From Alitta virens (Eukaryota; Annelida; Polychaeta; Phyllodocida; Nereididae): a stretch of 64,000 nucleotides of DNA. Of the stretch, positions 14,933 through 59,390 are shown in pieces (the first letter of the stretch is position 1; each line of letters opens with the position of its first letter). The notes below the pieces were generated by a model. It was not told the origin of the DNA and made no database searches. It worked only from the letters and a program-made list of their open reading frames with translations. Position numbers and translations under genes: made by a program. Location: positions 56,701,829 to 56,765,828 of the forward strand of contig OW028573.1 of NCBI GenBank assembly GCA_932294295.1, written 5' to 3'.

Positions 14933-15217
14933 GCGCTCGGGAATATTGCGAGGCTGAGGAGTTTTTGGCGCGTTGCAAAGCAGACGAAGTGGTTGTCATG
15001 GAGACGGCGTTGTACGGACGCATGTCAGTCGGACGTTGCGTCATCAAAGACTATGGCTACGTCGGCTGCAAAGCGGACGTCCTGGAGCACATGGACAACA
15101 AATGCTCAGGCCGAAGGTCCTGCGAAATAAGAATCCCGGACTCGACACTTGATGACGCCAACCCCTGTCCCAAAGACTTCAAGACGTTCTTGGAGGCCAG
15201 CTACAAGTGCGTTAAAG
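14933..15217 (+). CDS. Gene A exon: SUEL-type lectin domain
   Basis: The exon follows a TTTCAG acceptor and ends AAAG|GTGCGT; both borders are phase 1. The protein begins AREYCEAEEF. It shows the SUEL cysteine pattern and landmarks: the YGRM motif after VVVMETAL, GRCVIKDYGYVGC, CSGRRSCEIRIPD, NPCPKDFKTFLEASYKC. YGR and the Pro-Cys...(K/F)TxLEAxYxC end are the signatures of rhamnose/galactose-binding lectin domains. The motif order matches the SUEL exons of genes B and C. Confidence 0.92.
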
Positions 15218-18200
15218 GTGCGTTGCCATGGCAATTGATCTATAGTCGCTGTGAAATGAAAGCAGACTCCTCTGAGAGGTTTTTATCTCTTTCCTTTCAC
15301 GTCAGAATGGATAAGAGAGTCTAAAGCAAAAAGACTTTCAGACGAATGAGAAAGGCCCTGAAAAGGTGACATGGCAGATTCTTACTTAGCCACTCGCTCT
15401 AAAAGGGAATATAGTCTTATAGATGCCAACAGTATAATGAAATGAATCAGTCTTATTCTTAGTTCTTAAGAGTCTTTTATTGTGTTGTAATGAAATTGCT
15501 GAATTGTCTTGCACAGAGGGTGTGATAAATCCAAAAGTGTGGTGAAAACAATTTATGACGGTAATTTAAAACCACTCGGTTTGAAATAGATTAATAGATT
15601 CTCACACATTTCACTATCATGTCATATTTGAAAAGCTACGCAGGCTCCTCCCTAGGTAGGCTAGCCAGATTCAGGAGCCTTGAACATAAACATAATTTGA
15701 ATCAAATTGGGAAACTTTTAGGTTAATATGCTTGGGGTATTATTATTGCCAGATTCATTGCATATATGTTGTAAGAAGAACGCTTTTGAATAATAATGAT
15801 TACTTGTGACTCAATGGTATGTAGAATGGAGATAGGGTTGGAAGTTTTGTTAAAAATGATTTTCCATTTACTTTCAGTCGACAACCCTCCCTGTCGACCT
15901 TGCAAGAACTTCACAGAGGTCATAGCCACCTCCCCTCAGGGCTTTCTAGCCAGTATAGTCAGTGAAGAGAATAACTGTGGCACTGCTAACTGCCCTTACC
16001 TTCTCAGTGCTAGGCCTGGCCAGAGCTTCAACTTCACCCTGGTGGATTTTGCACTTTCACCGAAGCGCCGCTCTACGGCTGCGGTAAGCAACATGGAGGA
16101 TTTCTGCTACCGCTACGCCACTATGCGGGAACAAGGCCTTGACAAAGAAATATTCGTCTGTGGGGGAACACAACGCGTTCGATTCTCTTATACGTCACAA
16201 ACGAATGTCGTTCGAATAAAATTCGAAGGAGGACGCCATGGGGGTGCTTTCGGCCACTTCCTGTTAAAATATGATGGTAAAATGATTTGTTGCTTTTGAT
16301 ACAAATAAAGAAAACTTGGGCTCATGAAACTTTCTAAACATCATAAATGTGAATGCTTATTGTAAGAATCAAAATCTTATCTTCATGAAGAAAATTTTTT
16401 GTCATAACTTTTGCCACTTTTGATGATTTTAAACAACATTCCTGCAATTGCAGTTCTCGGCTGCGCAGAATACGAACCCCCACGCAACACGTGGATGAAA
16501 CCGGAAGGAAGTGACGTCATCGTTGGATGCGTATCAACAGGGGTACATTGGAGAGTCACGTGTCACGACAAACTATGGGTAGGAGAAGTGGGCGATTGTC
16601 CCCCAGGTGGGTAATTGGATTTTTATTTGATTGAATTACATGGAAATAGATCGATAAACATAATCATAATAATACTGCATGTAGGCCTGCCTGATTGCTC
16701 TAAGATACTATTATATATAAAGTAAATACACCATTAGATTAGATTAGACTAGATTAGACAAGATTAGATTAGATTCACTGGCACTGGACTGCTGTTATGA
16801 CATCAGCAAGTAAATCAACAATTTTTTTTTTTGTGATTGATGGTGTCACGGCCTCGCTCTGGGCACAATGGTTGCGTCACAGGACTGTGGGTGCAAATAG
16901 TGCGGAACTCAGCGCCTGTGGCAGGTTACCCCATGGTGCCCCACTTTGACATTAATTTTATGACCTTTTATTGATTTTTTTCAGGGGGCCCCGTGTCTGT
17001 CGGAAGTTCAACAGAGAGGTCCATGGCTCTTCCATTAGGTGATTTATAACCATTTCCTCGTTTCTCAAATAAAATATTCATGATAGTCTGTAATAATTAC
17101 CATTGCCTATTATGACTTAAAAATTTTTTGTGGTATCTAACCTATTATTGAATATAAGGCATCATTAGCGTTTATAAATTGTTTCCTGGATTGACTGACT
17201 GTGATATTTTCTTTGCAGGGATATTAATAGCCATTATTTTAGCCATTGCCATGGTGATCGGCGTCTTCATCTTAACATGTGGTCTTGTTTTTATAAAACG
17301 GTCTGTATTGATTTTTATAGTTTCCGGTGCATGTATAAGAATTATATTTATTTTGAAAATTTTGTGTTCTAATTTAATTGATGTGCAACGTGGTAGATCG
17401 GAAATTAGATGCACCTGTATGGTTAAATTGAAAGTACAAATTCTACAGACTAAGTAGTATGTAGTAGTTAAATGAACGGGCAGTCGTCTAAATGGAGTAT
17501 TTAACTTAGTAGTTGGTGCAGGAAATATCGACCAATAAATCTTGGGGACTTTTGGATCAACAGGGGGAGCTGTACGCTGGTCCTCAACATCATTGTGACG
17601 TCATCAATGCACTCTCTGACCTTATTGTATGATTACGTCATCAAACGAGGTTGTAAGGACCGACACGGGGCTTCCCCTGTTGGCTATAAAGTCCCCCCTT
17701 TTCTACTAGCTAGATTAAAACAAATTCAGCTGCTTCAGTCCCTTTAATGTATGATTGCTAACTTGTATTCTTACTCTCCCGCAGTCGTCGAATGGCAGCT
17801 TCCTCCCCTGCCACCACGGGCACTGTGGCCCTGTCCCGAGACCCGTACTACAAGGGCCAGCAGTTTTCCCACTACGGCACCGGAAGTCGGCGCTCGACCA
17901 AGGACTACGGGGGCAGGGTCCCTTATTCCAAGGAATACGATCCGCGATTACCAAAAGCAGAGTTTTTACCCGACTGCCAAGCGCAGACACTCGGACGATA
18001 CCAGCCGGGGCTTCCGTTTGAAGACAAGCAGCTCCCCCGGCGGCAGGACTTGGAACTGAGGCCCTTGCCCTCCATTCCTGATCTAAACTGCTCAGTGGTC
18101 CACCACGAGCCGGAGCTATCGCCCCCTATGTCTGCTGGCATTATACCCACAATGCCTAGCGATGAGGACCTTCCCAATGCCCCTCATTACTTTGAACTGG

Positions 18201-18394
18201 ACCCCGACATGAGAGGGCCCCCCTTCCGGAACCACGCCCGCCATGTTCCCTTGATTCACAAATCGCCAGAACAGGAGAACGCAGAAAACACGGGCAAAGA
18301 ATCGTATTGCTGGAACCCCCCTCGCCCAGCGCCCCCTATCAACAACGCCTTCGTTTTTACTTACAACGAATCAGCCAATTGCAGCTGGCCCTGA
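14933..18394 (+). CDS. Gene A: SUEL-CUB-CCP-like single-pass membrane receptor (5' leader exon not found)
   Basis: Six exons (14933-15217, 15878-16276, 16454-16606, 16985-17038, 17219-17300, 17785-18394) join in one open frame of 527 codons plus stop, given one upstream base from a leader exon. Counting from the first residue seen: SUEL/galactose-binding lectin 1-95, CUB 96-228, CCP-like 229-279, Ser/Pro linker 280-297, transmembrane 298-324, cytoplasmic tail 325-527. Known of the families: SUEL domains bind rhamnose or galactose, or protein ligands, and CUB and CCP modules mediate extracellular contacts. Inferred: a type I plasma-membrane lectin receptor. The signal-peptide exon is missing. 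The first acceptor is phase 1, as in B and C, so a leader ending in one extra base is expected, perhaps upstream of the window. It is the closest relative of gene B, 2 kb downstream. Not recognised as a named gene. Confidence 0.86.
15878..16276 (+). CDS. Gene A exon: CUB domain
   Basis: One uninterrupted exon of 133 codons between a CTTTCAG acceptor and a GATG|GTAAAA donor, phase 1 at both ends. CUB hallmarks in order are CRPCKNF, GFLASIVSEENNCG, CPYLLSARPGQSFNFTLVDF, FCYRYATMREQG, VCGGTQRVRFSY, VVRIKFEGG and GHFLLKYDG. Two N-glycosylation sequons are visible (NFTE and NFTL). The second aligns with NLTL in gene B. Gene B carries an extra intron in this domain that gene A lacks. Confidence 0.9.
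16454..16606 (+). CDS. Gene A exon: short CCP/sushi-like module
   Basis: A 51-codon exon, phase 1 to phase 1, after a TTGCAG acceptor. It has four cysteines and the late CCP pattern W-x-V-x-C...LWVGEVGDCPPG. It is shorter than a usual sushi domain of about 60 residues, so the family call is tentative. The module aligns with its gene B counterpart (GC...GGC...WAMTC...W.G...NCPQG), so it is conserved within this family. Confidence 0.82.
16733..16776. repeat. (TTAGA)n pentanucleotide microsatellite
   Basis: About eight imperfect ATTAG/ACTAG/ACAAG units, in the gene A intron between the CCP-like and linker exons. Confidence 0.85.
16985..17038 (+). CDS. Gene A exon: 18-codon juxtamembrane linker
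   Basis: A tiny exon between a TTTTTTTCAG acceptor and a TTAG|GTGATT donor, phase 1 at both ends. It encodes a Gly/Ser/Pro-type spacer ending MALPL, with the next exon supplying G. The gene B exon has identical length (54 bp) and ends FTLPL-G. The matching length, phase and LPLG end argue that this small exon is real. Confidence 0.75.
   Translation, partial: GAPCLSEVQQRGPWLFH
17219..17300 (+). CDS. Gene A exon: transmembrane segment
   Basis: An 82-bp exon after CTTTGCAG. It encodes about 24 hydrophobic residues (ILIAIILAIAMVIGVFILTC, then GLVFIK) followed by a basic stop-transfer run (KR, then RR from the next exon). It starts phase 1 and ends phase 2 at AAACG|GTCTGT. The donor is weak, but phase, length and position match gene B's TM exon (also 82 bp) exactly. 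Confidence 0.86.
17544..17695. repeat. Foldback element in gene A's last intron, carrying CRE and TATA motifs
   Basis: The two halves are imperfect reverse complements over about 50-70 bp, by eye about 75% identical near the ends. Examples are GGGGACTTTT with AAAGTCCCC, CAACAGGGGGAGC (17558-17570) with GCTTCCCCTGTTG (17670-17682), and GGTCCT with AGGACC. Near the centre lie TGACGTCA (17596-17603) and TTACGTCA (17633-17640), with TATAAA at 17685-17690. It may be a small MITE/foldback transposon or a long RNA hairpin. A regulatory role is only inferred. Confidence 0.6.
17785..18394 (+). CDS. Gene A exon: cytoplasmic tail and stop
   Basis: The exon starts after CTCCCGCAG with RRMAASSP, giving the basic inner-membrane flank, and ends at TGA 18392-18394. 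The tail is rich in Pro, Tyr, Ser and charge. Motifs shared with gene B in the same order are RPLPSIP (fits the class I SH3 ligand pattern R-x-x-P-x-x-P), YFELDPD, SPEQENAEN and a C-terminal NCSWP. Other features are DPYYKG and the Pro stretch PPRPAPP. No enzyme domain is seen. The tail is likely an adaptor-binding segment. Confidence 0.88.
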
Positions 18395-18501
18395 GGTCAC
18401 ATGACTGCTGTACCCGGTGAGCATGCGCACTGTCACATGCTATCCATACTGGTTGCCTGGCAACACTTTTTATCGTGCTGCGTCGTTCTGTGGGTCGTAT
18501 G

Positions 18502-18507
18502 AATAAA
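18502..18507 (+). terminator. Gene A poly(A) signal
   Basis: AATAAA lies about 107 nt after the gene A stop codon in AT-containing sequence, a normal place for a cleavage/polyadenylation signal. It gives a short 3' UTR. Confidence 0.65.
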
Positions 18508-20199
18508 ATTACTGAATGGAATCCATGGTTTTCATTAATTTTGAGCAGCAACGTGTTGTGTGTTTACCCTTATGGCAGCAGCGTGACCCCTCCATGCGCC
18601 CCACGTGGGTTACGTAATTGGGTCAAGTGCAGCACGTGTTTGTCATGTGCTGGTGCAAAGTGTCGTGCTATTCTGCTGCCCCCTGGATCTATCACTGGAT
18701 TAAAGATGCTGGGGCCCGCATCAGCCATAGATGCTGCTGCCGCTGCTGCTGCTGCCATGAATCAACGGCTGCATGAATGAGGATGCACGCTTCCCATAAT
18801 AACACTGGCGCAGCCCAGTCATGAATGAACACCCATAAAGCTTTCATGAATGAATTTAACGTTCGTGGATCCAATTCCACTGGTCCTGTTGTTGAAAAGT
18901 ACTCGCATTGATTTCTGTGAAACCAAAGTTCTTATGTTGCCATTGACGACCAAAATAAGTTAGCTTCGAAGCTTACATGTATATGTTATGTAAGTTACAG
19001 TAACGTGTAAACAAATCGGTCCTGCATTCAATATGACAAATATGTGACAACACATCAGTAATCGTGTGTACAAAATGACCAAAAAATGTATTATTATCAT
19101 CATAATTATTACGTACGTGCATTTGCCAAAGCTGATAATTTATTTTCCGGTTATATGGTGTTATTTATATAGTGCTTGTCCAGTTGACCTTTGGTCAGTG
19201 AATGTATGATCTTGTATGACTTCTGTGATAAACAAATTATCAAGTATGAATTGGTTTTTTCTTCTAATGGAATGGGTTAATGCTTTGTATTCGATATTGT
19301 AAGTTATCAATGATGAACCAGGGTATTATAAACAATAGCCACACAGTCCTACGATACTGTCACAACTCTCTGCACAGCGCTATAATATTACGTCATCAGG
19401 GCTGCAGCGCAGGTCAACGAAATTCTGTGAGCCTAATACGGTTGCAATATTGTTGTCATACATGACGCTGCGCTCAGTACGCTTGCACGTGTGACAGCAT
19501 CTAGGCTGTGACTGAGGAGCCCAGTACTCATCTAGCTGCAGTCCTTGTTTACATAGGGGAGAAATTGATCTGCCGATTATGTAACAGTGCCTAGAAATAG
19601 GTTAATAATAACGAGTATTCCCATCTTTATTACATAGATTACCAGCTATTATGATCAATGAATTGTATTAAATCATGGCACGTATGCGATTAATTTGTTT
19701 ATAATGTAAGGATTAAATTGGTATATTGATTTTGTAACAAGGCATACTTTGTAGATATTAGTTAAATGAGTAGGCCCTAATATAAATATGTTACTAACTG
19801 TCAGTATTAATGAAATTTGTGGAAATCGTGACATAATTATTTGCTAGATTCGGTTTGCAAGTGTTCATATAGTGAAATATTATTGCTAATATTGTCTGCC
19901 TGCAGCTGTAATGGTTTTAAGTGGATCAGGTTTACAAAATGGTATAACAGTTTGTTGTTGTCACGTGGGTTGGCCATTCACGGAGTTTTCACTTCATGTG
20001 AGCAATATTTAAATTGGAAATCGAGAAATACACCTGAATGGGCTTGCTATAATTCAAGAGATAGTGAATAGAGATGTGTTGAGATTTATAGAGGCACATG
20101 CTGGCAGCGCCATGATTATATACAATGGGAAAAGACATTGATCGCTTATGCAGGAGTGTCTGCTTGCTGCAGGCATGTGAGGATCCTGCGCTGGCCTAA
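18508..20199. other. Spacer between genes A and B
   Basis: AT-rich. It has a CTG/GCC tract (18726-18763) and several GAATGA words just past gene A. No exon is recognised. Confidence 0.55.
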
Positions 20200-20553
20200 C
20201 TGCATCTAGCATCAGTCTAGAATGGTTGATGCGGCGGCAGCGGCTCTCTAGCCAGCAGCTGCAGGCAGTGTAGAAGTGCAGGCAAGTGCAGGTACAGCAG
20301 CAACAGGGGACAGTTAGCAACATCACTGCAAGAAGAAAGAAGTACAAAAGCTGCAGTCACAGACACAGCAGCATCTTCAAGCAGCATTGCTTGATGTTTC
20401 AGAGCAGCTAGCTAGCTGCTTGCTGAATGTTTGCTGCGCAGAACCGTGCATAAATTATGTGCTGGATTAGACAGAATGAGAGAAGTGATGAGTAAAGAGA
20501 GTATCAGGCGGGCCAGGCATTACCATCCATTGTGAAGGGACACTCTAGTGGAC
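20200..20553 (+). promoter_or_regulatory. Presumed 5' UTR/promoter region of gene B
   Basis: A CAG/GCAG-rich segment immediately before the gene B leader exon. It includes an 18-bp perfect palindrome, AGCAGCTAGCTAGCTGCT, at 20403-20420. CAGTCT, GTTGATGC, GCGGCAG and GCCAGCA occur in this order at 20213-20258, as they do before gene C. Promoter function is inferred from position only. Confidence 0.4.
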
Positions 20554-20644
20554 ATGAGACTGACCTGCGGCCGAGCGTTGGTTTGGTTCTTTGCTCGAAT
20601 TGTCCTCTTGGAGACCGTTGGTCAGTGCTATGGCCGGAAGACAG
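20554..20644 (+). CDS. Gene B exon: start codon and signal peptide
   Basis: ATG in context GACATGA opens 30 codons beginning MRLTCGR, then a hydrophobic stretch ALVWFFARIVLLETV and a plausible cleavage zone VGQC. The exon ends phase 1 at ACAG|GTGGGT. Joined to the SUEL exon it gives Glu-Phe-Cys, the phase and Cys position seen in gene C. One Arg inside the hydrophobic run weakens the signal-peptide call. Upstream sequence shares ordered motifs with gene C's leader region, which supports this choice. Confidence 0.58.
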
Positions 20645-23600
20645 GTGGGTACTAAGGTGTTGCGAGTAGTCAGATTGGATAGTCATCGTCATATATTGTT
20701 GATCATATTATCTTCCTGTATATTTCACTGCTCCAGTTCGCATTGATGTTTCTGTGACAATAATTTGTCACCAAACATGGCTGCTGACATAGAAAATGTA
20801 TCTAGTCAAAACCTTTTATGTGACAAACAATTCGAGGCATTTCCCCTTAAAGCTGGCCTGTGCTCTGTAGTGGTATGGAAATTACTTCTCGGGGGAAATT
20901 TCATTTTGGAATAGTAAATATTTTTGAGCTAATGATGGCTTTAGACTCTATAGCATGCTAGACCTGGCTGTGGCAGCTCCATAGAGCTCTGATCGTATAT
21001 CGATTTTCTCATGCTGCTCTTGTCTGCTACTGTCCTCTATTATCGTCCTAGCGCCAGCCTTCTCTTCCTGATAGCATTGTTATTTGTTAATCAAAGCGCC
21101 ATATGCAATAGTTGGGCAAAAAGTACCAAATACGGTTGCCAGGTTATGACAATATACGGCTTATAGTTGTGTGCTTCTCTGTGAATGGGGAAAAACTAGC
21201 TGATGCCATCCATTGATAAAGCTGAGAGGCTTCAATGGAGAATAATGCATTTGTGAATGGCATTCGCCTGCAGCCACTGCTATAGATTATACAGCCCTGC
21301 GTTGTAATTCATTATCCAAATATGGTCTGCCTCTAGCAATCATTCCTTCTCCATAAGACTGATTTTTTCTTGGTTAATATTGTTTATTCTGAGCTTGCTT
21401 CAGGGAAGATGTGATAAATTCAAGGAATGTGGCAAACAAACTAGAAAACATAATTGTGTGACAAACTAGCCATAGCTCATAAGGCACTATGCAGCAAACA
21501 GTGCCCATGTGTCACAGCCAGCAGCTTACATGCTTTATATCGGAATTCAGGAAATATAATTTTGTTCAGGCTAATAACCATATTTGATTGTGCCAAAATG
21601 GGTATCAACTACATAATGATAAAAACATAAAGAGTGATAACATGAAAGAATGTGATGGTTTTCCTGTTTATTTTGGCATATTTAGAGTGTTTTCATTATT
21701 AGCTCCATTCCCTATTACATAAGGTATATATCCCTTCGGCTCAAACACCATATATTACTCTGTGGTTAATTTTATGATTCCAGTGTTTACCACCACTTTG
21801 CTTATAATTTATTGACAAAATTAAGATTATATTATTTGATGATATACGGGGTATTTGCTTTGAACTACAGAAAGATGCAAAAGGAATGTCCTGAAGTTTT
21901 TCGGTCAAAGCATTAAGCAACGCAAAATGGACATGATGCTGGCAATATTTAAAGCATGATAAGTTGTTAATCGTAAGAAGCGTTTTTATCATTGACAGTT
22001 GAATAATTTGTTTGTGATGTCCATGCTGTGTGAAAGAAAAATATAACCGCAAAACATGGGGACATAATCCCGGACATTCTTTTTGACTCATAGTGCTAGA
22101 GAGTCATCAGTGTCTGTGTAGGTTGTTTATTGATTTGTGTAATTGTTTATTGATTGATGCGTTAGTACAATACCCTTCTTTGCCCTTTATTTCCATCACC
22201 AGAGTTTTGCGAAACGGACGAATTCGAAGCCTCGTGCAACCCCAGCGAGGTGGTTGTCATGGAAACGGCGTGGTATGGGCGGATGAAGCTGGGTCGCTGC
22301 GTAAAGACGGACTACGGTTTTGTGGGGTGCCAAGCCAACGTCAAAGAGCACTTCGATAGCATCTGCAGCGGAAGGAGGTCGTGTGCCCTGAGACTTCCGG
22401 ATCGGGCCTTGGACAAGTTGAAAGAGTGCCCGCATGAGTTTAAAACTTACCTAGAAGCGAACTACACATGTATACCTGGTACTTTAACTTTGTTTATATA
22501 TATATAATAACGAATTTCCATCCTTGGTAAATCTAGAAACATTGGGATTAAAAAAAAAAAAATTTAAAATGTAACAAACCAAATCCACAACTATTTGAAT
22601 GAAGCCTTCATCAGTTCAACTCTCCAAACATTCATAGTAAGATCAATCAGTATCTTGGCGTAAAATGGTTAAAGCTACCAATATGTTATAAATTATTGGT
22701 TATTGTATACATGTACACGACCGTTGGCTTTGTCATTGCAGTTATTTAAATTTATTGGTCATAATAATCGATGAAGTGCTCATATAGTATTAGTACTTCA
22801 TGAGGTTTTTTCGTTGAAACATTCAATATATTGACTGTTATTTCATTCGAAAAAAGAGGGTGTTGAGAATTAATTGGAATTCATTTTTGTTTTTCTGTTC
22901 AGTGCTATACGAAATGTTCATCGATTTATTTACGCATGCATAGTGTTAACTTTTCTGAATGATAAATCATTAACGTAACTTAGATATATTTAGTGTCCTC
23001 AAGATATAGTACATGCAGTGTATATATATGTACAGTGTTTATGCTTAGTGCAAGGTGTTTGACTGACTATGTCACTCTGTCTCTTTGTCTCTATCTCTGT
23101 CTCTCTATCTTGATTGCCCCCTTTCTCTGTTATTCCCCTCTTCTACCCTTGTGTACCAAATGTAAACAAACGTGGTCTGCACTGGTGCCCCTTCATTGAC
23201 AATGTTTGACAGGAAGGCTCTTACCCCACTTTCCCAGCTGCCTAACTGCCCCACCACCCAAGACACGCTCAGCTTACTATCATGGCTTGTCCATTAAATA
23301 ATGATGTGAAATGAGTGGTGCAATTGTCATAACTCTTACAATCCATTAATTTGATTTAGCTTGTGCAACTACAGGCAGTCCCTAATATAGAAGTGACTTT
23401 TGCCACTTAAAATGCAATAACGCATGCATTCTGCAGAACGACTATAACTTCTGGTAATTGTATATATGTGCATGAGGAAAGGGTTGGAGTTGGATGCCAT
23501 ATATTTTACTTTTTAGACGTCATACGTACAGCTAAACAATTTGAATCATTTCGGTAGTGTAAATAAACAAACTGCAGGCTTTTCACTGCAGGATCCTGCT

Positions 23601-25730
23601 CCTGCCAAATTCCATCCTGCATTGCTCTCCAAGCAAACTTTCCCAGGCCCATCGACCCTATTTATTAAGCCCCATGAGTCACCCCATATACAAGACCCGG
23701 GAGAAAGGAAAGCTCGGGATTTATGCCAAGTATCCAGAAGGGTTTGCAAGCAGGGCGTGATCATTGCTGCACAATGCAACCTGATAGGTTTGCACAAGAA
23801 ACTGAGAAGGAAACGTTGCCGTCACCTACTTTGCAAACTTTGATATAAAACGCATGATCATACGATACATTTTGTATTTATTCTTATGATAAGTGCACGA
23901 CAATACTTTGAGAAACTGAAATGTCAGGCGAAATGTGCTACGTGCGTTTTCCATGCGTTTGGGTAAACGCATGGAAAACGCATGGTTTTAACCTCATTTT
24001 AATTCGGCAAAAACCATGCCTATTCAATGCGTTTATCCTTCTCATGGAAAATGCACGTGGCACATTTGGCCATGTAGATCCTTTAAAAATGTCCCTATGT
24101 AAGATTTAGATTGCTAAATATCAGCTAATTTGCTTTTTGCATCTATATTCCGCGCATTGCATCTAACTGGGTAACTAACTGTCTGTTTAGTGTTATGTTA
24201 GTATGACCATTTCTTTTGCTAATTTATTTGCCATTCAATCTGCCCTTTCATTTGTCATTTTGTCTGCCATTTCATCTGCTATTTCATTTACAATTTCATC
24301 TGCCATATAATTTGCCTTTTTATTTGCCACATTATGTCTTTTCATTTGCCATATCACCTGCCAGTTCGACTACAGTCTCATTTGCTATTTTATTTGCCAT
24401 TTCAATTGCCATATCATCTTCCATAGCATCTGCCTTGTCATTTACCATTTAACCCGCAATTTCATTTGTCATTTCATTCGTTATGTCACTTGTCATTTCA
24501 GTTGAGGCAAGCCAATGCCAATTGTGCCAAACTTCTCAGTACGCAAAGGTCACGGGGGCCAGTGGCTATTTGGCCAGCATAGTGACCAACGAAACCAGAC
24601 AGCAGTCCGAATGTGGATCTTCCAAGTGTCCCTGGCTGCTGCAGGTCAACCCAGGCCAAAGGATCAATCTCACCCTCTTCGATTTTTCCACCTCAAATAA
24701 TAAGGTCCATGGCAGGTTGGTAATAAAACACCTAGTGGAGACAAAAGAGCGAGAAAAAATAGCAGTTACGTTGTGTGTTGAATGTGATCATAACAGACCA
24801 AGTGTGGTCTACTGCAATCAGAAAAAACTTAAGTACCTGGTTACATTGCCTGAAAATATTGCTTGTAGTTTGAGATAAAAATGCACTGTGCAAACATAGT
24901 ATACTATTATTGAGCCAGCCAGAACACTATAATGGTGTATGCGATCAATTTTATGAAGTATACTAACATATACATGTACGTATTACTACCACGTGGTGCA
25001 GCACCTTGGTTGAACATAGTGATTAGATTTAAACACAAACTGAATGTAAGAGTCCTATCAATCAAATTAACTTGATATCATAGAAGCTGACAGCAAGTTG
25101 TAGCCAGTTTATTGCTGTAGTCACATCAAGAGGTTCAAAGTAATATGACTTCCGGCATGCCCCTTTCAAAGCTCTTGTGGGTGAACCGAGTGTCAACATC
25201 ATCTTCTTGTTAAATGTTTGATTTCTAAGAAAGGCTGAGTATTTAGAAGGTCGATGTCAAAGCAAAAATGCTCATAGTAATTCCAAAAGCCATTCCGATC
25301 AAGTGTTTATGAATATTACCTTCTCAAAAGCCAAGTGTTGGGGTATAGGTCAGTGACATCCACCATCTTTTATAAAGGAACCACCTTCTAGGCAAGAGCC
25401 AATGTTAGCTTTGCATCAGGAAATCTGTTTTATGCAATAAGCCATTAATGAATTCATTGATAAGCGAGACATGAATAAATGTATGTGACCCACTTTTTTC
25501 ACCAGCAGCTTGGATGGCTGCTTCCGGTTTGCTGTGATCAAAGAGAAACGGCCGTCAGCGACGTCTAGCGGGTATGAGATACACGACAGTCCTGCCTGTT
25601 CAGGGGGAGGCAGGGTGCGCCATCTATACACTTCTTCTACCAATGAAATAGAAATTCACGTCATCAGCCCAGAGGTCTTCTCAAGCCAGGGCCAATTCCT
25701 ATTTTATTATGAAGGTATGTAGTAGTAGTC

Positions 25731-25808
<78 letters not shown>

Positions 25809-27911
25809 TGAAGCTGTAAAAGGGACATTATGAGGTCGAATTTCACTCGAATTTCTAGTGAAAGTTGTGTCCATCAATAGTGTCATTAGTGCGCAGTTCA
25901 CTATAAATTAGCAAACAGTTCACTAGAAATTAGTGTGCAATTTGCGCGCATTTATACGAACACGCAACTTTTAAAGCTTCATAGATAGTTGTATCTTTCA
26001 GTACTAGTAGCTTCTTCGTTTATTAATTATGGTGTCAAATATTGATTTGTGTATTTCAACTGATATATAGTATTAGTAACAAATTTCATCGTAGCATTCC
26101 TTGTTTTATTGCAGCCGTTGGCTGTCCAGACATTCCACCGGAGCCGAATTCATGGTTCAAGCGCAAGAACGACCAGGAGGCGACGGGAGGTTGCGTCACA
26201 GACGCCTTGGAGTGGGCGATGACCTGTGTGGGGTCAAAGTGGGAGGGCGATGATAGACGGAATTGCCCTCAAGGTCAGTTAAGATGTCTATTTTGGTCGT
26301 TTGTATAAGATTAAACACCCTTACTTAAGGCCTTTCTGGGGTGCATTTTCTTTCTTGCATTTGTTTCCAGTATCTTTTGAACAATCTCCTTAATCTAAGA
26401 AAAGAAGGTGTTCTTATTAATATTATAGTTTCTCTTTGTGATTGTAGACCTAAAAATGCAGATATTTCTAGCATGACTGATTTAGGATGTTCAAAACAAT
26501 GAGAAAATTGCTATTTATTCAGAATTTGCTGGAAACAATAGACTTCTCAAATCCATAAGTCAGCGAGCAGAATAATTCTGAAACTCAAAATTGTATTTAT
26601 TTATATATGTAAATTTTTTAATTTGGTTGAATAATCTCAGAAAGTGTGGAAAATTTGCATTAAGCATAATTAATTGACTTTGCCCTACACCTCATTATAT
26701 ATACGTACTGAATCGGATGTGATGTTTTCAGATGTTTTGCCTCCTGGTCCAGCAACAGGGAAACCTTCATTCACACTACCTCTAGGTAATCCAATTACCT
26801 TTAATAAACTTGGTGCTTCGGAATAAACTGAACATCCTCGGAAAATACACTTAATCAAAGTGGCTAACTTTTTTTATACATACCGTTTCAACAAACCTTT
26901 TAGACATTTTGACTGACCTTTTTAACAAAGGTTTAGACATTTCCACTAACATTAGATATTTTTCAATCTAGAATTACAAAGATCTTAGCCATGTTGGTTT
27001 AGCATTTGATGTGTTTGTTATGCAGTGGCTAATGGTACGTCTACATAACTTATTTATCTGTATATCTTTGCAGGGGTCCTTGTAGCAATTATAATTGGTA
27101 TAGCTTTAGTGATTGGAGTTCTTATTTTGACAATTGGGCTTGTATGTTTCAAGAGGTGAGTGTCTTTGATATGATCTGGAAATTCAAATTATGCTTAATA
27201 TAGATATAATTGTGTATTTTGAGTAAATATCGTGGCTAATATGTTTCCAGTTACGCCCACAGACGTCAACCAGTGACGTACCGCCGACCGGACACCTACG
27301 GCAGTCGGCACCGACGCAGCTCGGCCTTCCACGAGGATATGTCGGCAGCCACGCCCTTGCAGTACGCCAAACATCCGCCGGAAGTTCCTCCGGAGAAGCG
27401 CCACGTGCCCGCCAACATCCGGGAGAATGTGTACATGGAATCACGGCCCCTTCCCTCTATCCCCAACCAGCCTGACAATGACGCAGATGACAAGAGTGAG
27501 CGCAGTTCCAAAATACAAGTGTACAGGACCTCTTCCGGGAGAGAACACTACCACAACCCACGACTGGTGGTCAACACCCGATTCGAGGCTCCCTACGGCA
27601 TGCCCGTCGGAGAGTACGACCCGCAGTACTTCGTGCTAGACCCGGACAATGAACTGGCCGTGGACATTCCGCCCTCTCCGTGCTGCGTAGCGGCTTCCGC
27701 TTCCGGTCCGCCCCGGCGGCAGGCCAGAGGAGGCATCAGTAGCGCCAAGCAGAAGTCCCCAGAAGAGGAGAATGCTGAGAATTTCTGTAAGGAAGTTGCA
27801 AGTCTCAATAATTCCTGTCATGAATTCCCCATTAGTCCAATTCCTCCACCTTTACCTGGGCCCAGTTTCATTCCCCATAACTGCAAGGGAGGCAACAGCA
27901 GCTGGCCCTGA
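20554..27911 (+). CDS. Gene B: SUEL-CUB-CCP-like single-pass membrane receptor, complete
   Basis: Eight exons (20554-20644, 22203-22478, 24502-24715, 25509-25714, 26115-26273, 26732-26785, 27074-27155, 27251-27911) total 1743 nt, exactly 581 codons including stop. Order: signal peptide 1 to about 25, SUEL 31-122, CUB 123-262, CCP-like 263-315, linker 316-333, TM 334-361, tail 361-580. Splice phases equal those of gene A at every shared border, and one extra phase-2 intron splits the CUB domain. Inferred role: type I surface lectin receptor with a signalling tail. It is a tandem duplicate of gene A. The N-terminal exon is the least certain part; the rest is well supported by paralogy. I recognise no named orthologue. 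Confidence 0.87.
20645..22202 (+). other. Gene B intron 1
   Basis: Bounded by GTGGGT and CATCACCAG. It contains a second short hydrophobic start-initiated stretch at 21011 (MLLLSATVLYY...) whose only phase-1 donor is weak. Nothing else is recognised. Confidence 0.5.
22203..22478 (+). CDS. Gene B exon: SUEL-type lectin domain
   Basis: The acceptor is CATCACCAG and the donor CCTG|GTACTT, phase 1 at both ends. The protein runs EFCETDEF, NPSEVVVMETAWYGRMKLG, RCVKTDYGFVGC, CSGRRSCALRLPD, ECPHEFKTYLEANYTC. Cysteines and YGR match genes A and C. An N-glycosylation sequon (NYT) sits at the last cysteine. Confidence 0.92.
23928..24070. repeat. Nested inverted-repeat element in gene B intron
   Basis: The outer arms 23931-23955 and 24043-24067 match as reverse complements at 23 of 25 positions. 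Inside lies a perfect 18-bp inverted repeat (23943-23960 with 23965-23982, 4-nt loop GGGT) and a third pair, GCATGGTTTT/AAAACCATGC. The element is about 140 bp and would fold strongly. It is probably a MITE-type insertion; a hairpin RNA is an alternative. Confidence 0.65.
24206..24501 (+). repeat. Degenerate 12-bp minisatellite (TTTGCCATTTCA) ending in a splice acceptor
   Basis: About 24 imperfect copies of a 12-bp unit resembling TTTGCCATTTCA run through the 3' end of the gene B intron. The last copy, TTGTCATTTCAG, supplies the acceptor of the first CUB exon at 24502. Internal units carry T in place of the final G and so lack AG. Confidence 0.75.
24502..24715 (+). CDS. Gene B exon: N-terminal half of CUB domain
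   Basis: The exon starts after CATTTCAG, which is itself the end of a 12-bp minisatellite, in phase 1. It encodes QCQLCQTSQY, GASGYLASIVTNETR, ECGSSKCPWLLQVNPGQRIN and LTLFDFSTS. The donor GGCAG|GTTGGT is phase 2. It aligns with the first half of gene A's single-exon CUB (GFLASIV, CPYLL, PGQSFNFTLVDF). Sequons NET and NLT are visible. Confidence 0.82.
24716..25508 (+). other. Gene B intron inside the CUB domain
   Basis: A 793-bp phase-2 intron (GTTGGT...CAGCAG) absent from gene A. It is AT-rich with no recognised insert. Confidence 0.7.
25509..25714 (+). CDS. Gene B exon: C-terminal half of CUB domain
   Basis: The exon encodes SLDGCFRFAVIKEKRPS, then SGYEIHDSPACSGGGRVRHL, NEIEIHVIS and GQFLFYYEG, aligning with FCYRYATMRE...GHFLLKYDG of gene A. 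The acceptor is a tandem CAGCAG (NAGNAG), so use of 25506 instead of 25509 would add one Ser without a frameshift. The donor GAAG|GTATGT is phase 1 and runs straight into a TAG microsatellite. Confidence 0.83.
25720..25808 (+). repeat. (TAG)n microsatellite
   Basis: About 30 units of TAG with two interruptions (TCG near 25730, GAA near 25764). It begins five bases inside the intron that follows gene B's second CUB exon, so it abuts the donor GTATGT. Confidence 0.9.
26115..26273 (+). CDS. Gene B exon: short CCP/sushi-like module
   Basis: A 53-codon exon, phase 1 to phase 1 (TTGCAG acceptor, CAAG|GTCAGT donor). Four cysteines are seen (VGCPDIPPEPNSWF, TGGCVTD, WAMTCVGSKWEG, NCPQG). The spacing and Trp positions match gene A. 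Confidence 0.84.
26732..26785 (+). CDS. Gene B exon: 18-codon juxtamembrane linker
   Basis: A 54-bp phase 1-1 exon encoding a Pro/Gly spacer, DVLPPGPATGKPSFTLPL, after TTTTCAG and before CTAG|GTAATC. Size, phase and the LPL-G ending match gene A. Confidence 0.75.
   Translation: MFCLLVQQQGNLHSHYL
27074..27155 (+). CDS. Gene B exon: transmembrane segment
   Basis: An 82-bp exon after CTTTGCAG, with a strong donor AAGAG|GTGAGT (phase 2). It encodes VLVAIIIGIALVIGVLILTI then GLVCFKR, a typical single-pass helix with a basic inner flank. The core AIxxGIALVIGVxILT pattern is shared with gene A. Confidence 0.9.
27251..27911 (+). CDS. Gene B exon: cytoplasmic tail and stop
   Basis: The exon opens after TTTCCAG with SYAHRRQP and ends at TGA 27909-27911. 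The tail is about 220 residues, basic at first, then Pro- and Ser-rich. Motifs shared with gene A in order are RPLPSIP, DPQYFVLDPD, SPEEENAEN and NSSWP at the C-terminus. Extra features are a Tyr motif ENVYMES and a proline run PIPPPLPGP. No catalytic domain is seen; SH3 and possibly phospho-Tyr adaptor binding are inferred. Confidence 0.9.
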
Positions 27912-28712
27912 GTGCGAATCTTGCACTAGGCCTTTTCCAGTTAAAGCCCGAAAACAAACTGTAAGAAACCTGTGCACTTTTGTGCTCCGTAGAAAACAGG
28001 ACTGAACACTGAATATATATATAATCATCATTATGTACTTTTGAGATTAATTATTACCAAATGATATTAGTTAACTTGCATTTACGTGGTTGCCTGTAAG
28101 CTCTTTCTGTTTGTTTTCGTAAGTGATGTTTTTGTTATCGTGCAAACACTAATAATAATACCAGCTTTTAATATGAATGCTAATGTCATGATTATCGTTA
28201 ATTATTAGCGGATAGTATACAGCGTCCAATCAGGGTTAAGTGTCTATAACCACTCGAATGATTATTGCAATCAAATGCAGACATATCTGACTAAGATAAT
28301 ATTATTATTGCTGCTTTCAGATCTATAGCTTGGTTTAGGGACCTAAATAATTGAGCAAAATGGCAGCTGCCTCTACCGCCTCCTCTCTCCTCCGATACCC
28401 CAAAGGACTGCGTCATGAAATGAAAAGTAATCTCAATTTGTGTTGTGCTGAATATTTGCTAAACTGAATTTGTAAATATTCCAATGAAACTAAGTGATAT
28501 GAAGTACCCAAAGATATGTTTGTTATTTTCAATATGGCGACCACGCATGGTCGATAAAATGCGACATAATATTGTTACATAATCTTCATTGTCTCGTCAC
28601 AACGTGATCTTGATTTTGGAGTTGTTTTGTTGATATGAATATGATCGATGTATATGATTATGATGTGACTACCATGAGCAATTGAGTATAGCATTCTGTA
28701 TAATGTTTGAAT

Positions 28713-28773
28713 AATAAAACCGCTTTAAATGACTTTCGTGTGAGCAATGATTCATAGAGATATTTTTAATAAA
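28713..28773 (+). terminator. Gene B candidate poly(A) signals
   Basis: AATAAA occurs at 28713-28718 and again at 28768-28773, about 800-860 nt after the gene B stop. The interval 27912-28712 is AT-rich and would be the 3' UTR. Which signal is used cannot be told from sequence. Confidence 0.5.
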
Positions 28774-29013
28774 TGTTCATGCAAGATTCCAAAGCAACTG
28801 CCCTGAGCCTTACAGCTATTGCCCGTGAAATCCCAAACTAGCCTAGAGCGCCCCTAGCGTATTTTCAGGAACTAAAAGCTTAGCATTTCAGGCACGTTTG
28901 AGCACTACACTGTTGCAGGCAACAAATGATTTGGATCAAGTTGCTTGCAATAAAGGAAACAGACAATGTTTCAAATAGATTTTAACGCCCACTAAAGCAA
29001 TGGATGATGTGTA

Positions 29014-34400: not shown

Positions 34401-34467
34401 ATGGAGCTCATGTTCTTACAAGAAACTTTCACCTTAGCAGTTTTGCTCACAGTCGTCTCGGCATTCG
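34401..34467 (+). CDS. Gene C exon: start codon and signal peptide
   Basis: ATG preceded by TCTAAT opens MELMFLQE, then the hydrophobic core TFTLAVLLTVV and a good cleavage motif V-S-A before Phe. The donor is the perfect consensus G|GTAAGT at 34468. The exon is 67 coding bases (22 codons plus one base), phase 1. Confidence 0.78.
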
Positions 34468-55400: not shown

Positions 55401-58400
55401 CAGGGATGAGCTGTATAACCCGAGTGGTTCACACAACCTGGCCTCAGGAATATGAGGCAGCACCAGACGTAAGGGAGATAATCTCTTTGGTCTTCCTCTT
55501 ATGAATAGTTTATCAATCTTGCACTTAGTCGCCTCTGAAGATGATTTGCTCCATCTTTCATGAAGTATATCGCATCTTCGCGAGGTAGATTCCCGTCTTT
55601 CAAGTGAAAAAGTATCTTTGGAGTCGTGAAATGCCCACAAAGGATATCTACATAAAGCTTGAGGCTCCTCTAGAAATGTGAATAAACATTACCTGATAGT
55701 GCTTGAAAGATTTCCCAGAAGAAAGAAAAGACAGATAATAAGGAGGTTTAGAGGAGACCAAAGGAAAGAAGAGAACTTGTCTGAGCAACGTGCATTTATT
55801 GGCAAGATGTGAGGACATGGCGTACCCAGAAAGAATCCGCTTGTTATGGTAAAAAAGACAAATTGAATCTGTGAATTTCCGCAAACGGAAAGAGGAAACG
55901 GAAGCATTTGTGGAGAAAATGGCCCTCCAAGCCCAGGGCACAAGCGCTCTGTTCCTGCTGTCACATTTCCCTCGTGTTTCTGGCTCAAAGAAAGCAGCAT
56001 CTTTGGGAATGTGACAGCAATTTTGGTCCACTGTCAAAATCACACAGTGTGTTGTGTTGCTATGCACGCAGACTGAGTGGGCAGGCAGGACTGTCGAAAT
56101 ATTTAGCATCGGGAACATCGTTTGAGGCAAATGCATGGCTTATTATAGCAATGGGGAAACACTTGTTTCGATCATAGCTGAAGTCATGCGCATAGCAGAG
56201 TAATTATGTTGACGGATATGCCATTGTGTGTCATTGTGTCTTCAGCTAGTCTCATTAGGGACACAATGAGTTGCCGGATGCATCACTGGCCTTGTTTATG
56301 TGCATTCGCCAAATAGATGGTTGTGTCTCCCTCTTTTCTCTCCCAGCTGTTTGCTAATTTGCCTTTACTGCGCGATATGAATGTAGTGCTAACATGGTCA
56401 ATTAGTTGAGCATGAATTCAATTAGGGAATGTAATTTGCTCTGCTTTGGGGGCCAGGCAGATGAGCAATGGCTCTGCCTCTTCAATTTATCACCCATTGA
56501 TGGCCTCTCAGCCATTTATTTGACAGGGCAGGCTCTGTGGCGTTACGTCATGCTACTGCTGCTGCTGCTGCTGCTGTAGTGGGGTGATGGGGATGGTCAT
56601 TGGTCTCATCGTTCTTTTTCTAATTCACCGCTGTTCCTCTCACCTAATGGCGCTGGCAGTCTTGTCTGCTGACAGCAATCAACCCCGAAACATGAATATC
56701 AGAGCTGGGCTTGGGCTAGCCCTGTCGTATTAAATGAACACGACGCGGTGATTATTGCCCCGATAAGGTGGCTGGCCTGGCCTATAAATACAGCCTTTAA
56801 TACACCTTGATATTAGGTGGGCTCGTTATCTGCTTGGCAATTCCTCCCAGCCAACCCAGGAGAAAATGAAGCGGGCTGGTCTGATATGCAAAGCCCTCAG
56901 CGATGGCTGCTCCCTGATAATTCTAATGACACTGAATCCAGCCAAAAAGCCTGACATTGGCACTTGCCTTGCCTTAGAAGACAGCATATCAAGCAACACA
57001 AGCCTCGCTCTTTTAGTACCTATTGCAATGCAGTCAACAGTATCAATGACACGTTTATTGATTAATCATGATTATTTACTTATGAAGACCACATAAAGAA
57101 AGCCTGGCAAGCTGCCACATGAACTGAATGACCAATGAAGTATCCAAACTAGCAACCAAATAGGCAACCAAGCGATGACAGAAACAAAGAACAAAACAAC
57201 CAGTTCTAGCAAAACAAACAGCAAAGGAGCATTTCTGCATGCTTTGACTCAAATTGGGGCATTTTTTGTGCTGTCTTTTGCAGGCTTTACTGTCAGTGTC
57301 CTTTTTTGTTGCTCCAACAAACAAAGGGAGAGATGAGAAGGAAAGATGGCTGTCTTTGCTAATCCCATCATATCCCTTTCTGTCTTTGCACTTTAAAGAC
57401 GAAGGTGGCTGCCGAACCTGAAACCTGAAACTGCTGAAGGAAAATTTGCAAAGTGGAGGCTGGGATCAAAGCAACTAAAGGCTTCATTATATGATGGCAT
57501 TAAGTCCTGCTTCACTAGGGTGCAGGAAGTGGGTGATTACAAACAACAGGAAAACTGTATGTATTGATTGAGTCAAGTGCTGCAGCACCATTGCCGTCTC
57601 CCCCACTGCATTATTGACCCTCTCTGCAGTCATAGGTTGATCAGCACGAGTTTAGTTTCATTTCTGCCACCCATCATCCATAACATCCATGCCACCATCC
57701 ATCCTTAAAAAAAAGTCCCATTTCTCCCTAGGTAATATAATCGTGGGAAGGAAACAGCATCTTGCAAAGAAAAAGCAGCATTAAGAAACAAGTTCTACAC
57801 TTTTATGTGATGGCTCTTTTTCTTATTTGAGTTTTAATGTTCTTTCAAATCGTTCTTTATATGTGAGAATCACAAGAGAAAATGATATATCACGCAAGAA
57901 ATGCGAGTTCTGACAGTTGTATGACATTATTATGCGCAACAATGATATGAATTCTTCAGAAGTAATTATGTGCAGATAAGATGAGCTGAATTTTTAACCG
58001 ACAAACGCATAAAGGAAAAGTAATACAATAGAAAGAGTAGTGGATATATTCAACAGGAATCTATGCAGATAATGAAATGGTGTAGTGTGACAGGCTGCTA
58101 GCAGTGGGGCTTTTGTCTCTGCCCTTCCATAGAATATGAGACGTGACAGGCATGGCGCTTTGGGAAACCTGTGGAGGCCATTGAAGGTCTTGGAGGTCCT
58201 CCAGTCCTCCTTTGAGGTAGTGGAGGCCCTTTGAGATAAACCTCTGAAGGTCCTCCCTGTCATCGTTCACTTTTGTGTCTTCATGAGGTCTTCATCAAGT
58301 CTTCATCAAACCCTTATACCTGACCTGCTAACTTGTGTGTGTGCGTTTACACATACAGCTGCACATGTATATGCAGATTGTGTGTGTTGGGCCTTGGTCA

Positions 58401-59390
58401 TTGTTATGCTGATGGGCTGCTCAGTTGCCTGTCAATATTGCCTGTTAGCCCATAACACTAATGTCCATTTCCATCTCGCGTCTATTTCTCCTCATGCCGC
58501 CTCTTTGTCTCTAAGCCCTTTGAAACCCAGAGGTCCTTCTGCAAGCCCTTTGAAATACAGAGGTGGTTCTGCCATGCTGTTTTCAATAGGCAGGCCATGT
58601 TCAATGCTATAATCTCCAGAATCAAATGCAATACATGTATACATATTTGCATGCAGCTTGCATTAATGCCATGGGCATGTTGTATATTGCATGTAGCTTT
58701 TGTGTGAAGTACAGCTGCACCTTGAAGCAAATGGAGTTTCCTAATTAAGAGAGCTGACGTCTGGCACACATTACAATAAATCTCTGTGACTTAAACACGT
58801 GTTCATTCCGACTGCTCAATTCCGCTGCTAATGCAGTGTTAAAAAAGAAACGAGAAGCTGTGAGGATAATGAAACCGCGGCACATAGCAGATGGTATACA
58901 ACACAAAACAAAAAAGTCAATTGATGCAGCACTTCAAGCTTACAGAGCTCCTGCAGATCAAATGTCGCAAAGAAGGGCCTTCTTATTTTCCACTTTAATG
59001 TGTTTTTATCTCATTGCTTTTGATGTGTGCTGTATATTTTTTTCACAATTCGAATGGCAATGTGTCATGTTTCATTCTTTCTGTTTTCTTTTCTAGGTCT
59101 CAACGATTACTGCGAAGGAGAGATTTTTGTTGCCAAATGTGAACCCGATGAAGTGGTTGTCATGACCAACGCCTCCTACGGCCGAATGAACCTGGGCAAA
59201 TGTCTGCGAGTGGATTATGGCAACATCGGTTGCTCTAGCAACGTCCTAAGCATCCTGGACGCCAAGTGTTCCGGTCGGCGAGGCTGCGAGGTCAGGGTAT
59301 CGTCCATAGTGGACCTCATGAGGGCCAAGCCCCACCCTTGTTCGAGAGACCTTCGCAGCTACTTGGAAGCCACCTACAAATGTGTCAAAG
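34401..59390 (+). CDS. Gene C: third SUEL receptor gene, 3' partial (signal peptide and lectin exons only)
   Basis: Exon 34401-34467 encodes a signal peptide and ends phase 1 (TTCG|GTAAGT). Exon 59097-59390 encodes a SUEL domain that starts phase 1 after TTTTCTTTTCTAG, and joining gives ...SAF-G-LNDYC. No other signal-peptide or SUEL exon was seen in the 24.6 kb between them, so the pairing is inferred from phase, strand and family structure. The lectin exon ends phase 1 (AAAG|GTAGGC), as in A and B, so CUB, CCP, TM and tail exons are expected past 64000. A leader from another gene is the main alternative. Confidence 0.74.
39013..39060. repeat. Four 12-bp units each beginning TGACAC
   Basis: TGACACATCATA, TGACACATCCAA, TGACACTTGAAA and TGACACGACGCC follow one another exactly. 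The first six bases are invariant and the rest diverge, within the gene C intron. Confidence 0.8.
40111..40140. repeat. Perfect 13-bp hairpin with 4-nt loop
   Basis: CATGGAGTCATAA (40111-40123) and TTATGACTCCATG (40128-40140) around ATGC, flanked on both sides by directly repeated GTCATAG-like words. It is inside the gene C first intron. Confidence 0.8.
42680..42731. repeat. 14-bp tandem repeat (CATTATGACAACAC), about 3.7 copies
   Basis: The copies start at 42680, 42694, 42708 and 42722, with only an A/G change in copy three and a shortened last copy. Confidence 0.85.
48162..48226. repeat. CAG-rich triplet tract
   Basis: AGCAGCGGCAGCAGCAGCAT, then another CAG x6 run and CAA triplets. It is the longest of several CAG/CTG tracts in the gene C first intron. 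Others lie at about 40800, 44788, 47490, 48895 and 56553. Confidence 0.85.
51184..51220. repeat. Poly-G tract
   Basis: A run of 14 G (51184-51197), then further G6 blocks within 25 bp. Four or more G-tracts close together have G-quadruplex potential. Similar runs are at 49307-49317 and 51971-52020. Confidence 0.9.
58513..58572. repeat. 30-bp tandem duplication
   Basis: AAGCCCTTTGAAA followed by CAGAGGT and TTCTGC repeats at 58513-58542 and 58543-58572 with a few mismatches, shortly before gene C's SUEL exon. A looser relative, GAGGCCCTTTGAGATAAACC, lies at about 58225. Confidence 0.75.
59097..59390 (+). CDS. Gene C exon: SUEL-type lectin domain
   Basis: 98 codons with all family landmarks: LNDYCEGEIFVAKCEPDEVV, YGRMNLGKC, VDYGNIGC, DAKCSGRRGCEVRV, HPCSRDLRSYLEATYKC. 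It is slightly longer than the A and B versions between CEVRV and HPC. A glycosylation sequon (NAS) directly precedes YGR, which A (TAL) and B (TAW) lack. Confidence 0.9.

What the first reader, a model, noticed from the sequence alone, without database searches (positions are those of the whole stretch)
14933..59390. Tandem cluster of SUEL-CUB-CCP-like transmembrane receptors
Seen: three same-strand units with matching SUEL exons, two of them with a full CUB, CCP-like, TM and tail series. Known: SUEL domains occur in egg lectins, EVA-1-type and latrophilin-type receptors. I know of no described family with this exact order, so a lineage-specific, possibly immune or gamete-recognition, receptor family is inferred.
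Basis: partly seen in the sequence, partly recalled or inferred. Interest (0 to 1): 0.8.

Follow-up and report, generated by a model that had tools for sequence, protein, structure and literature searches.

The report
Annelid lectin-CUB receptor gene cluster
Two nearly complete receptor genes and the first part of a third lie side by side in what is probably a segmented-worm genome; they belong to an unstudied family of single-pass cell-surface proteins with a sugar-binding-type head and a tail that looks built to dock a signalling enzyme, but what they recognise is unknown.

Summary
Units 1 (14933-18394) and 2 (22203-27911) each splice into one open frame: SUEL lectin domain, CUB-type domain, a short four-cysteine CCP-like module, one transmembrane helix and a tail ending SWP-stop; their first (signal) exons were not found. 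Unit 3 shows only a SUEL exon (59097-59390). Of 28 relatives found, 26 carry the head and 2 only the tail. The 10 with a species name are all annelids (Capitella 6, Paralvinella 2, Helobdella 2). SUEL is firm; CUB rests on relatives and predicted fold; CCP on a cysteine/tryptophan pattern and a loose fold match only (0 of 26 modules hit Pfam Sushi). In the ectodomain tree U1 and U2 fall in two clades that each hold a Capitella protein, so they are old paralogues, not a recent local expansion. Two tail motifs, RPLPx(I/L/V)P and Y(F/Y/T)xLD(P/A), occur in 16 of 16 members of that part of the tree. The first keeps four of the five contact residues of VSL12, a Src-family SH3 ligand, with I, L or V at the fifth. 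Best reading: a lectin-type receptor or co-receptor that recruits SH3/SH2 signalling proteins. Ligand and role are untested; nothing here supports an immune or gamete role.

The parts
14933..15217 (+). U1 SUEL lectin exon, phase 1-1
   Evidence: Pfam PF02140 40.1 bits for the frame over it; splice sites
15878..16276 (+). U1 CUB-type exon, phase 1-1
   Evidence: no Pfam hit itself; aligned to relatives by tblastn; relative P0015 passes Pfam CUB; CUB fold in models of relatives
16454..16606 (+). U1 CCP-like four-cysteine exon, phase 1-1
   Evidence: invariant Cys/Trp pattern in 26 aligned modules; fold match with C1s CUB2-CCP1; no Sushi Pfam hit
16985..17038 (+). U1 stalk exon (54 nt), phase 1-1
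   Evidence: splice sites, same length as in U2
17219..17300 (+). U1 transmembrane exon (82 nt), phase 1-2
   Evidence: splice sites; 18 of 27 residues identical to U2
17785..18394 (+). U1 cytoplasmic tail exon with stop (SWP-stop)
18059..18079 (+). U1 RPLPSIP, SH3-ligand-like motif
   Evidence: read; 16 of 16 tails of the 16-row clade; VSL12 contacts
18188..18208 (+). U1 YFELDPD conserved tyrosine motif
   Evidence: read
20554..20644 (+). Weak candidate for the U2 signal-peptide exon (phase 1 donor)
   Evidence: the minus-strand control gave 2 such hits, so not better than chance
22203..22478 (+). U2 SUEL lectin exon, phase 1-1
   Evidence: Pfam PF02140 34.2 bits for the frame over it
24502..24715 (+). 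U2 CUB exon, first half, phase 1-2
   Evidence: Pfam CUB 19.0 bits, below cut-off
25506..25714 (+). U2 CUB exon, second half, phase 2-1 (this intron is absent from U1)
26115..26273 (+). U2 CCP-like exon, phase 1-1
26732..26785 (+). U2 stalk exon (54 nt), phase 1-1
27074..27155 (+). U2 transmembrane exon (82 nt), phase 1-2
27251..27911 (+). U2 cytoplasmic tail exon with stop (SWP-stop)
27444..27464 (+). U2 RPLPSIP, SH3-ligand-like motif
   Evidence: read
27627..27647 (+). U2 YFVLDPD conserved tyrosine motif
   Evidence: read
59097..59390 (+). U3 SUEL lectin exon, phase 1-1; rest of the gene beyond the window, undetected or absent
   Evidence: Pfam PF02140 37.5 bits for the frame over it; borders; no further exon found

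Best explanation
A tandem pair, perhaps a triplet, of type I single-pass receptors of an annelid multigene family. Shown by sequence: SUEL, CUB-type, four-cysteine CCP-like module, short stalk, one transmembrane helix, and a tail with two sharply conserved motifs. Inferred: the head binds a ligand, either a glycan through the Glu/Tyr/Lys site kept in U1 and U2 or a protein as in latrophilin. Inferred: the class I SH3-type motif RPLPSIP recruits and opens a Src-family or similar SH3 kinase, which phosphorylates the Y(F/Y/T)xLD(P/A) tyrosine and creates an SH2/PTB docking site. This would make it a receptor or co-receptor for adhesion or guidance rather than a secreted lectin. Architecture about 0.9; SH3 recruitment about 0.5; Src-family identity and tyrosine switch about 0.3.
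Against: No binding, expression or ligand data. The Lys of the sugar site is followed by a one-residue insertion relative to latrophilin, and 17 of 29 rows lack the full triad or are gapped there. U3 has Arg, and the Lys-to-Arg change dramatically reduced or abolished sugar binding in latrophilin-1. None of the 12 members outside the 16-row clade has the SH3 motif (some of their gene models lack a tail), so the mechanism is not shown for the whole family and cannot be stated for U3. A PxxP motif alone does not name its SH3 partner. CUB and CCP-like parts diverge a good deal (U1-U2 46 of 130 and 16 of 50). The CCP-like module has no sequence-profile match.
Confidence: 0.5

Rival explanations
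1. Guidance or adhesion co-receptor like EVA-1 or Neto: the head binds a protein ligand and partners sideways with another receptor, while the tail motifs serve scaffolding or trafficking rather than Src-type kinase signalling.
For: Receptor SUEL domains often lack sugar-site residues, and EVA-1 acts as co-receptor (PMC2430599, passages; PMC4133157, start of abstract in listing). Neto2 and neuropilin are among the fold matches. SUEL is well conserved (55 of 91 U1-U2).
Against: The sugar-site triad is intact in U1 and U2. The tail carries an SH3-ligand core kept in 16 of 16 members of that clade, more specific than a generic scaffold tail.
Confidence: 0.3
2. Immune pattern-recognition receptor: the SUEL domain binds bacterial rhamnose or galactose glycans and the CUB-CCP part assembles complement-like partners.
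For: CUB-CCP pairing resembles MAP-1, C1s and MASP. The sugar triad is present in U1 and U2. A bivalve SUEL lectin promotes agglutination of Gram-negative bacteria, as stated in PMC8878817 (passages). CUB and CCP-like parts are less conserved than SUEL.
Against: SUEL, the presumed recognition domain, is well conserved; few copies found (6 in Capitella, 2 each in the other two; lower bounds); no protease or effector domain in the Pfam rows shown.
Confidence: 0.12
3. Gamete-recognition receptor, as the egg-lectin link suggests.
For: Only that SUEL lectins are known from sea-urchin eggs (PMC8878817, passages).
Against: Gamete proteins usually diverge fast (general knowledge), while SUEL keeps 66 of 91 residues between U1 and P0016. 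No expression data.
Confidence: 0.04
4. The three SUEL exons are alternative parts of one gene, or unit 3 is a pseudogene fragment or belongs to another gene.
For: No convincing separate first exon was found for any unit and no downstream exon of unit 3 within 4.6 kb.
Against: U1 and U2 each have their own TM, tail and stop, and fall in different clades with separate relatives. U3 has intact frame and splice sites.
Confidence: 0.14

Closest known systems
EVA-1 / C21orf63 (EVA1C)
   Same: Single-pass receptor with SUEL (RBL) domain outside
   Different: EVA-1 is described as two extracellular RBL domains and one TM (PMC2430599, passages); here one SUEL, then CUB and CCP-like modules, and a different tail
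Latrophilins (ADGRL, LAT-1)
   Different: Latrophilins are 7TM adhesion GPCRs; one TM helix here, and no GPCR family among the 25 of 29 Pfam families shown
Egg lectins and secreted rhamnose-binding lectins (SUL-I, CSL3)
   Same: SUEL fold; Glu/Tyr/Lys residues in U1 and U2
   Different: Those are secreted tandem SUEL domains (recalled); this is a membrane receptor with a signalling-type tail
Neto and neuropilin type CUB receptors
   Same: Single-pass, CUB-containing ectodomain; fold matches
   Different: No SUEL domain there (recalled); no sequence relation shown
C1r/C1s/MASP/MAP-1 CUB-CCP proteins
   Same: CUB followed by a CCP-type module
   Different: Secreted complement proteins, no SUEL, no TM (recalled)
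Annelid database proteins named hypothetical, SUEL-type lectin or CUB domain-containing
   Same: Same order, long relatives: this is the family
   Different: 28-49% identical to the U1 or U2 query; none seen characterised in the papers searched

Membership tests
Annelid SUEL-CUB-CCP-TM receptor family (defined here) | SUEL-CUB-CCP-like-TM-tail order in one reading frame | tested here: met
   U1, U2; relatives. U3 only SUEL.
SUEL/RBL domain proteins | SUEL domain with its cysteines and YGR motif | tested here: met
   3 of 3 exon frames above Pfam cut-off; YGR in U1, U2 and U3
Sugar-binding RBL lectins | Glu after first Cys, Tyr of YGR, Lys of loop 2 | tested here: inconclusive
   Present in U1, U2 with an insertion next to Lys; Arg in U3; binding not testable
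CUB domain | Pfam CUB match or CUB fold | tested here: met
CCP/Sushi domain | Pfam Sushi profile match | tested here: not met
   0 of 26 modules (filters drop most weak matches); no convincing PDB profile hit
CCP/Sushi domain | Four cysteines with Trp before the last, CCP fold after CUB | tested here: inconclusive
EVA-1 | Two SUEL domains | tested here: not met
   One SUEL stretch in U1, U2 and P0015
EVA-1 | FAM176 C-terminal region (recalled as EVA-1 feature) | tested here: inconclusive
   PF14851 in 1 of 15 members at E 0.12 only
Latrophilin | Seven TM helices | tested here: not met
   One long helix after the head in both models, besides a signal-peptide-like N-terminal helix
Src-type SH3 ligand (class I) | RxxPxxP core with contact residues | tested here: met
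   RPLPSIP in U1, U2; RPLPx(I/L/V)P in 16 of 16 of the clade
Src-type SH3 ligand (class I) | Measured SH3 binding | not testable with these tools
   needs binding assay

The most novel reading that the evidence does not exclude
An annelid-restricted receptor family in which a lectin-CUB-CCP head is wired straight to Src-family kinases through a near-optimal SH3 ligand and one conserved tyrosine: a lectin-controlled tyrosine-kinase switch evolved separately from vertebrate lectin receptors. In this genome members of both old clades sit together in a tandem array.
Probability: 0.22. Interest if true: 0.68.

Novelty: new variant of a known kind. Interest (0 to 1): 0.48.

Why it matters
SUEL receptors are known from a few kinds (latrophilin, EVA-1, PKD1-like; PMC2430599, passages), and PMC8878817 calls the role of SUEL lectins in lophotrochozoans elusive (passages). 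A separate annelid receptor family with two sharply defined tail motifs gives a direct, cheap test: does the tail bind SH3 domains, and does the head bind sugar or protein. It would add a receptor class to annelid development, regeneration or immunity studies, with Capitella as a named species in which to test it.

Tried and rejected
Own-genome search for further SUEL genes: the genome search was busy on all seven tries, so the copy number in this genome is unknown.

Downstream exons of unit 3: tblastn over 59391-64000 with U1, U2 and 14 relatives, then with U1, U2 and all 28, gave nothing convincing; the best rows were E 0.011 (minus strand, a proline-rich tail piece of P0014) and 0.038 (P0017). 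Absence may only mean a long intron.

Signal-peptide exons: a heuristic scan of 9001-14932, 18396-22202 and 45001-59104 found 0 for U1, 1 for U2 (20554-20644) and 1 for U3, against minus-strand controls of 0, 2 and 0; not accepted.

Extra copy between units: 20248-20340 (+) resembles the start of the CUB module (E 0.023 and 0.039 against the whole window; 0.001-0.047 against the 3.8 kb gap). Short and unflanked; left open. The other gaps (1-14932, 27912-59096) gave nothing at E up to 0.05.

Other genes: Pfam on 10 of the 218 ORFs of 70 aa or more gave only one sub-threshold match (SPOC, E 0.02). The other ORFs outside the units were not scanned.

The profile search with A1 returned only 7 proteins, with candidates capped; single-sequence queries did better. 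All three searches find only relatives sharing short exact words, so the lack of named hits outside annelids is weak evidence of absence elsewhere.

Tree limits: long branches in 12 of 28 rows; the SUEL-only tree is poorly resolved (2 of 26 inner branches starred), leaves U3 unplaced and puts U2 beside Capitella P0015 (95/89), against the ectodomain tree. Roots are midpoint only. P0013 and P0014 (tail-only) were left out. A shared SxIVDL stretch of U3 and P0024 (by eye) hints at kinship but was not tested.

Fold rows set aside: matches of the second model to Clostridium perfringens enterotoxin at 7-12% identity and of both models to Plasmodium P113 and RIPR, taken as shared beta-sandwich shape.

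Literature: nine searches. The seven on the family (21, 31, 32, 47, 58, 64, 65) list no paper that I saw to describe this architecture, but listings were capped (e.g. 20 of 598, 15 of 52). The papers with both domain names that looked closest (PMC3390340, PMC6626399, PMC4877951) name Gal_Lectin or rhamnose-binding lectin and CUB separately in the passages read; PMC3390340's domain figures could not be seen. The library lacks most subscription papers. One search (RPLPPLP) found nothing; one found VSL12 papers.
Full report
What was checked. The window is animal-type DNA of 34-52% GC in 2-kb steps. Translating it around the stated coordinates shows two series of exons on the plus strand and a third SUEL exon. 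Unit 1 uses exons 14933-15217, 15878-16276, 16454-16606, 16985-17038, 17219-17300 and 17785-18394. Unit 2 uses 22203-22478, 24502-24715, 25506-25714, 26115-26273, 26732-26785, 27074-27155 and 27251-27911. Joined, they give open frames of 526 and 550 residues, both ending SWP-stop. Every listed intron starts with GT and ends with AG, and the phases agree between units: 1-1 for the SUEL, CCP-like and 54-base stalk exons, 1-2 for the 82-base TM exon, and 2 at the start of the tail. The difference is an extra phase-2 intron inside the CUB region of unit 2. Unit 3 has a SUEL exon at 59097-59390 with good borders and nothing recognisable after it. The first, signal-peptide, exons of all units are missing from these models.

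Domains. SUEL (PF02140) passes Pfam's cut-off in the frames over all three exons: 40.1, 34.2 and 37.5 bits against 31.4. In the joined unit 2 the score drops to 29.2. CUB is below cut-off for unit 2 and without a hit for unit 1, but a Capitella relative, P0015, passes (25.9 against 21.4), and 9 of 15 scanned members match at E up to 1. The third module has invariant G-C, C, C, W and C columns in 26 of 26 aligned copies (26 of 28 available were used). It matches neither Pfam Sushi (0 of 26) nor, convincingly, any PDB chain by profile (best E 0.49).

Relatives. A search with unit 2 gave 14 proteins; the best was 49% identical over 95% of the query. A profile search gave one more, and a search with unit 1 gave 13 more: 28 in all, of which P0013 and P0014 hold only the tail, and some of the other 26 are incomplete at either end. 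Ten carry a species name: Capitella teleta 6, Paralvinella palmiformis 2, Helobdella robusta 2, all Annelida. Several unnamed ones are uninterrupted proteins on contigs of about 2-3 kb, which I take to be spliced transcripts; they support the exon joins. The window species is therefore probably an annelid (inference). The six Capitella proteins lie on contigs of six different lengths, so they are not shown to be clustered there.

History. In the ectodomain tree of 28 rows, unit 1 groups with P0016 (95/87) and P0007 (100/99), and then with Capitella P0015 and P0017 (95/82). Unit 2 lies in a separate clade of 11 rows (98/93) that includes Capitella P0005 and Paralvinella P0002. The 16 rows together stand apart from the other 12 (97/90). 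On this tree the split between unit 1 and unit 2 predates the split of this species from Capitella. The tree of SUEL alone disagrees for unit 2 and leaves unit 3 unplaced; it has 91 columns and 2 of 26 inner branches well supported.

Tail. Aligning the 16 tails of the clade that holds units 1 and 2 leaves two conserved islands at the threshold used: RPLPx(I/L/V)P and Y(F/Y/T)xLD(P/A), each in 16 of 16. SWP ends 13 of 16; the exceptions are P0005, P0010 and P0017. In 2,000 rounds of shuffling the tails, at most 1 of 16 had the first motif; this tests composition, not shared descent. None of the other 12 members has the first motif and 3 of 12 have a form of the second; some of these 12 lack a tail in the gene model. 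[quoted passage not shown] PMC6864063, passages). RPLPSIP keeps four of these five and has Ile for Leu11. That it fits the class I consensus is general knowledge. What binds the SWP end is unknown.

Sugar site. In latrophilin-1, Glu42 (next to the first Cys), Tyr63 and Lys120 bond rhamnose, and changes of Glu42 or Lys120, even to Asp or Arg, dramatically reduced or abolished binding (PMC2430599, passages). Units 1 and 2 keep Glu, Tyr and Lys, with one residue inserted after Lys; unit 3 has Arg. 12 of 29 rows keep all three; 5 rows are gapped at the Glu position. Sugar binding is thus possible for units 1 and 2 and doubtful for unit 3.

Role. SUEL keeps 55 of 91 residues between units 1 and 2, 66 of 91 between unit 1 and P0016, and 56 of 91 between unit 2 and P0001. 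CUB keeps 46 of 130, 64 of 134 and 68 of 132; CCP-like 16 of 50, 28 of 50 and 19 of 51; TM 18, 23 and 23 of 27; tail 43 of 161, 30 of 136 and 81 of 185. So SUEL and TM are the most conserved parts, while CUB and CCP-like are much less so. A conserved SUEL argues against an arms race at that domain and lowers the immune and gamete readings, but this is no rate test, and CUB or CCP could still be the contact surface (inference). The best reading is a receptor or co-receptor that signals through SH3- and perhaps SH2-containing proteins. The architecture is shown; every step from ligand binding on is inferred.

Literature. Seven searches on the family listed no paper that I saw to describe this order; listings were capped. 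I read passages of PMC8878817, PMC9334734, PMC2430599, PMC4140816, PMC6864063, PMC3390340, PMC6626399 and PMC4877951, and only listings of the others. PMC8878817 says the role of SUEL lectins in lophotrochozoans is elusive and that bdelloid rotifers have SUEL in large membrane proteins; whether those are related was not tested.

Checking. Mended: identity range of relatives (28-49%), enterotoxin rows (7-12%), the statement on conservation of the head (now SUEL only), and the limits of the scans; two checks were added (tblastn with all 28 relatives; three papers). The odds did not change.

Noticed in passing
25719-25808: A (GTA)30 microsatellite begins 5 bases after the exon border at 25714, at the start of the intron after U2's CUB exon.
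   Followed up: no
24207-24477: Degenerate 12-base tandem repeat (CCATTTCATCTG, 22.8 copies, 62% matches) ends 25 bases before the U2 CUB exon begins.
   Followed up: no
24716-25505: Extra phase-2 intron inside the CUB region of unit 2 that unit 1 lacks; gain or loss not resolved.
   Followed up: partly
27912-59096: 31 kb between units 2 and 3 in which no gene was recognised by the limited scan, with a GC-richer stretch (about 42-54 kb, up to 52%).
   Followed up: partly
20248-20340: Weak plus-strand similarity (E 0.001-0.047 against the gap alone) to the start of the CUB module, between units 1 and 2; possible decayed copy or chance.
   Followed up: partly
P0011, P0012, P0019, P0020, P0022, P0024, P0025, P0027 tails: Members outside the 16-row clade carry other tail motifs by eye (YESPNF/K-like; HIWxxPLP-like), suggesting different partners.
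   Followed up: no
42680-42730 and 58513-58572: Short tandem repeats: 14-base unit x3.6 and 30-base unit x2.
   Followed up: no
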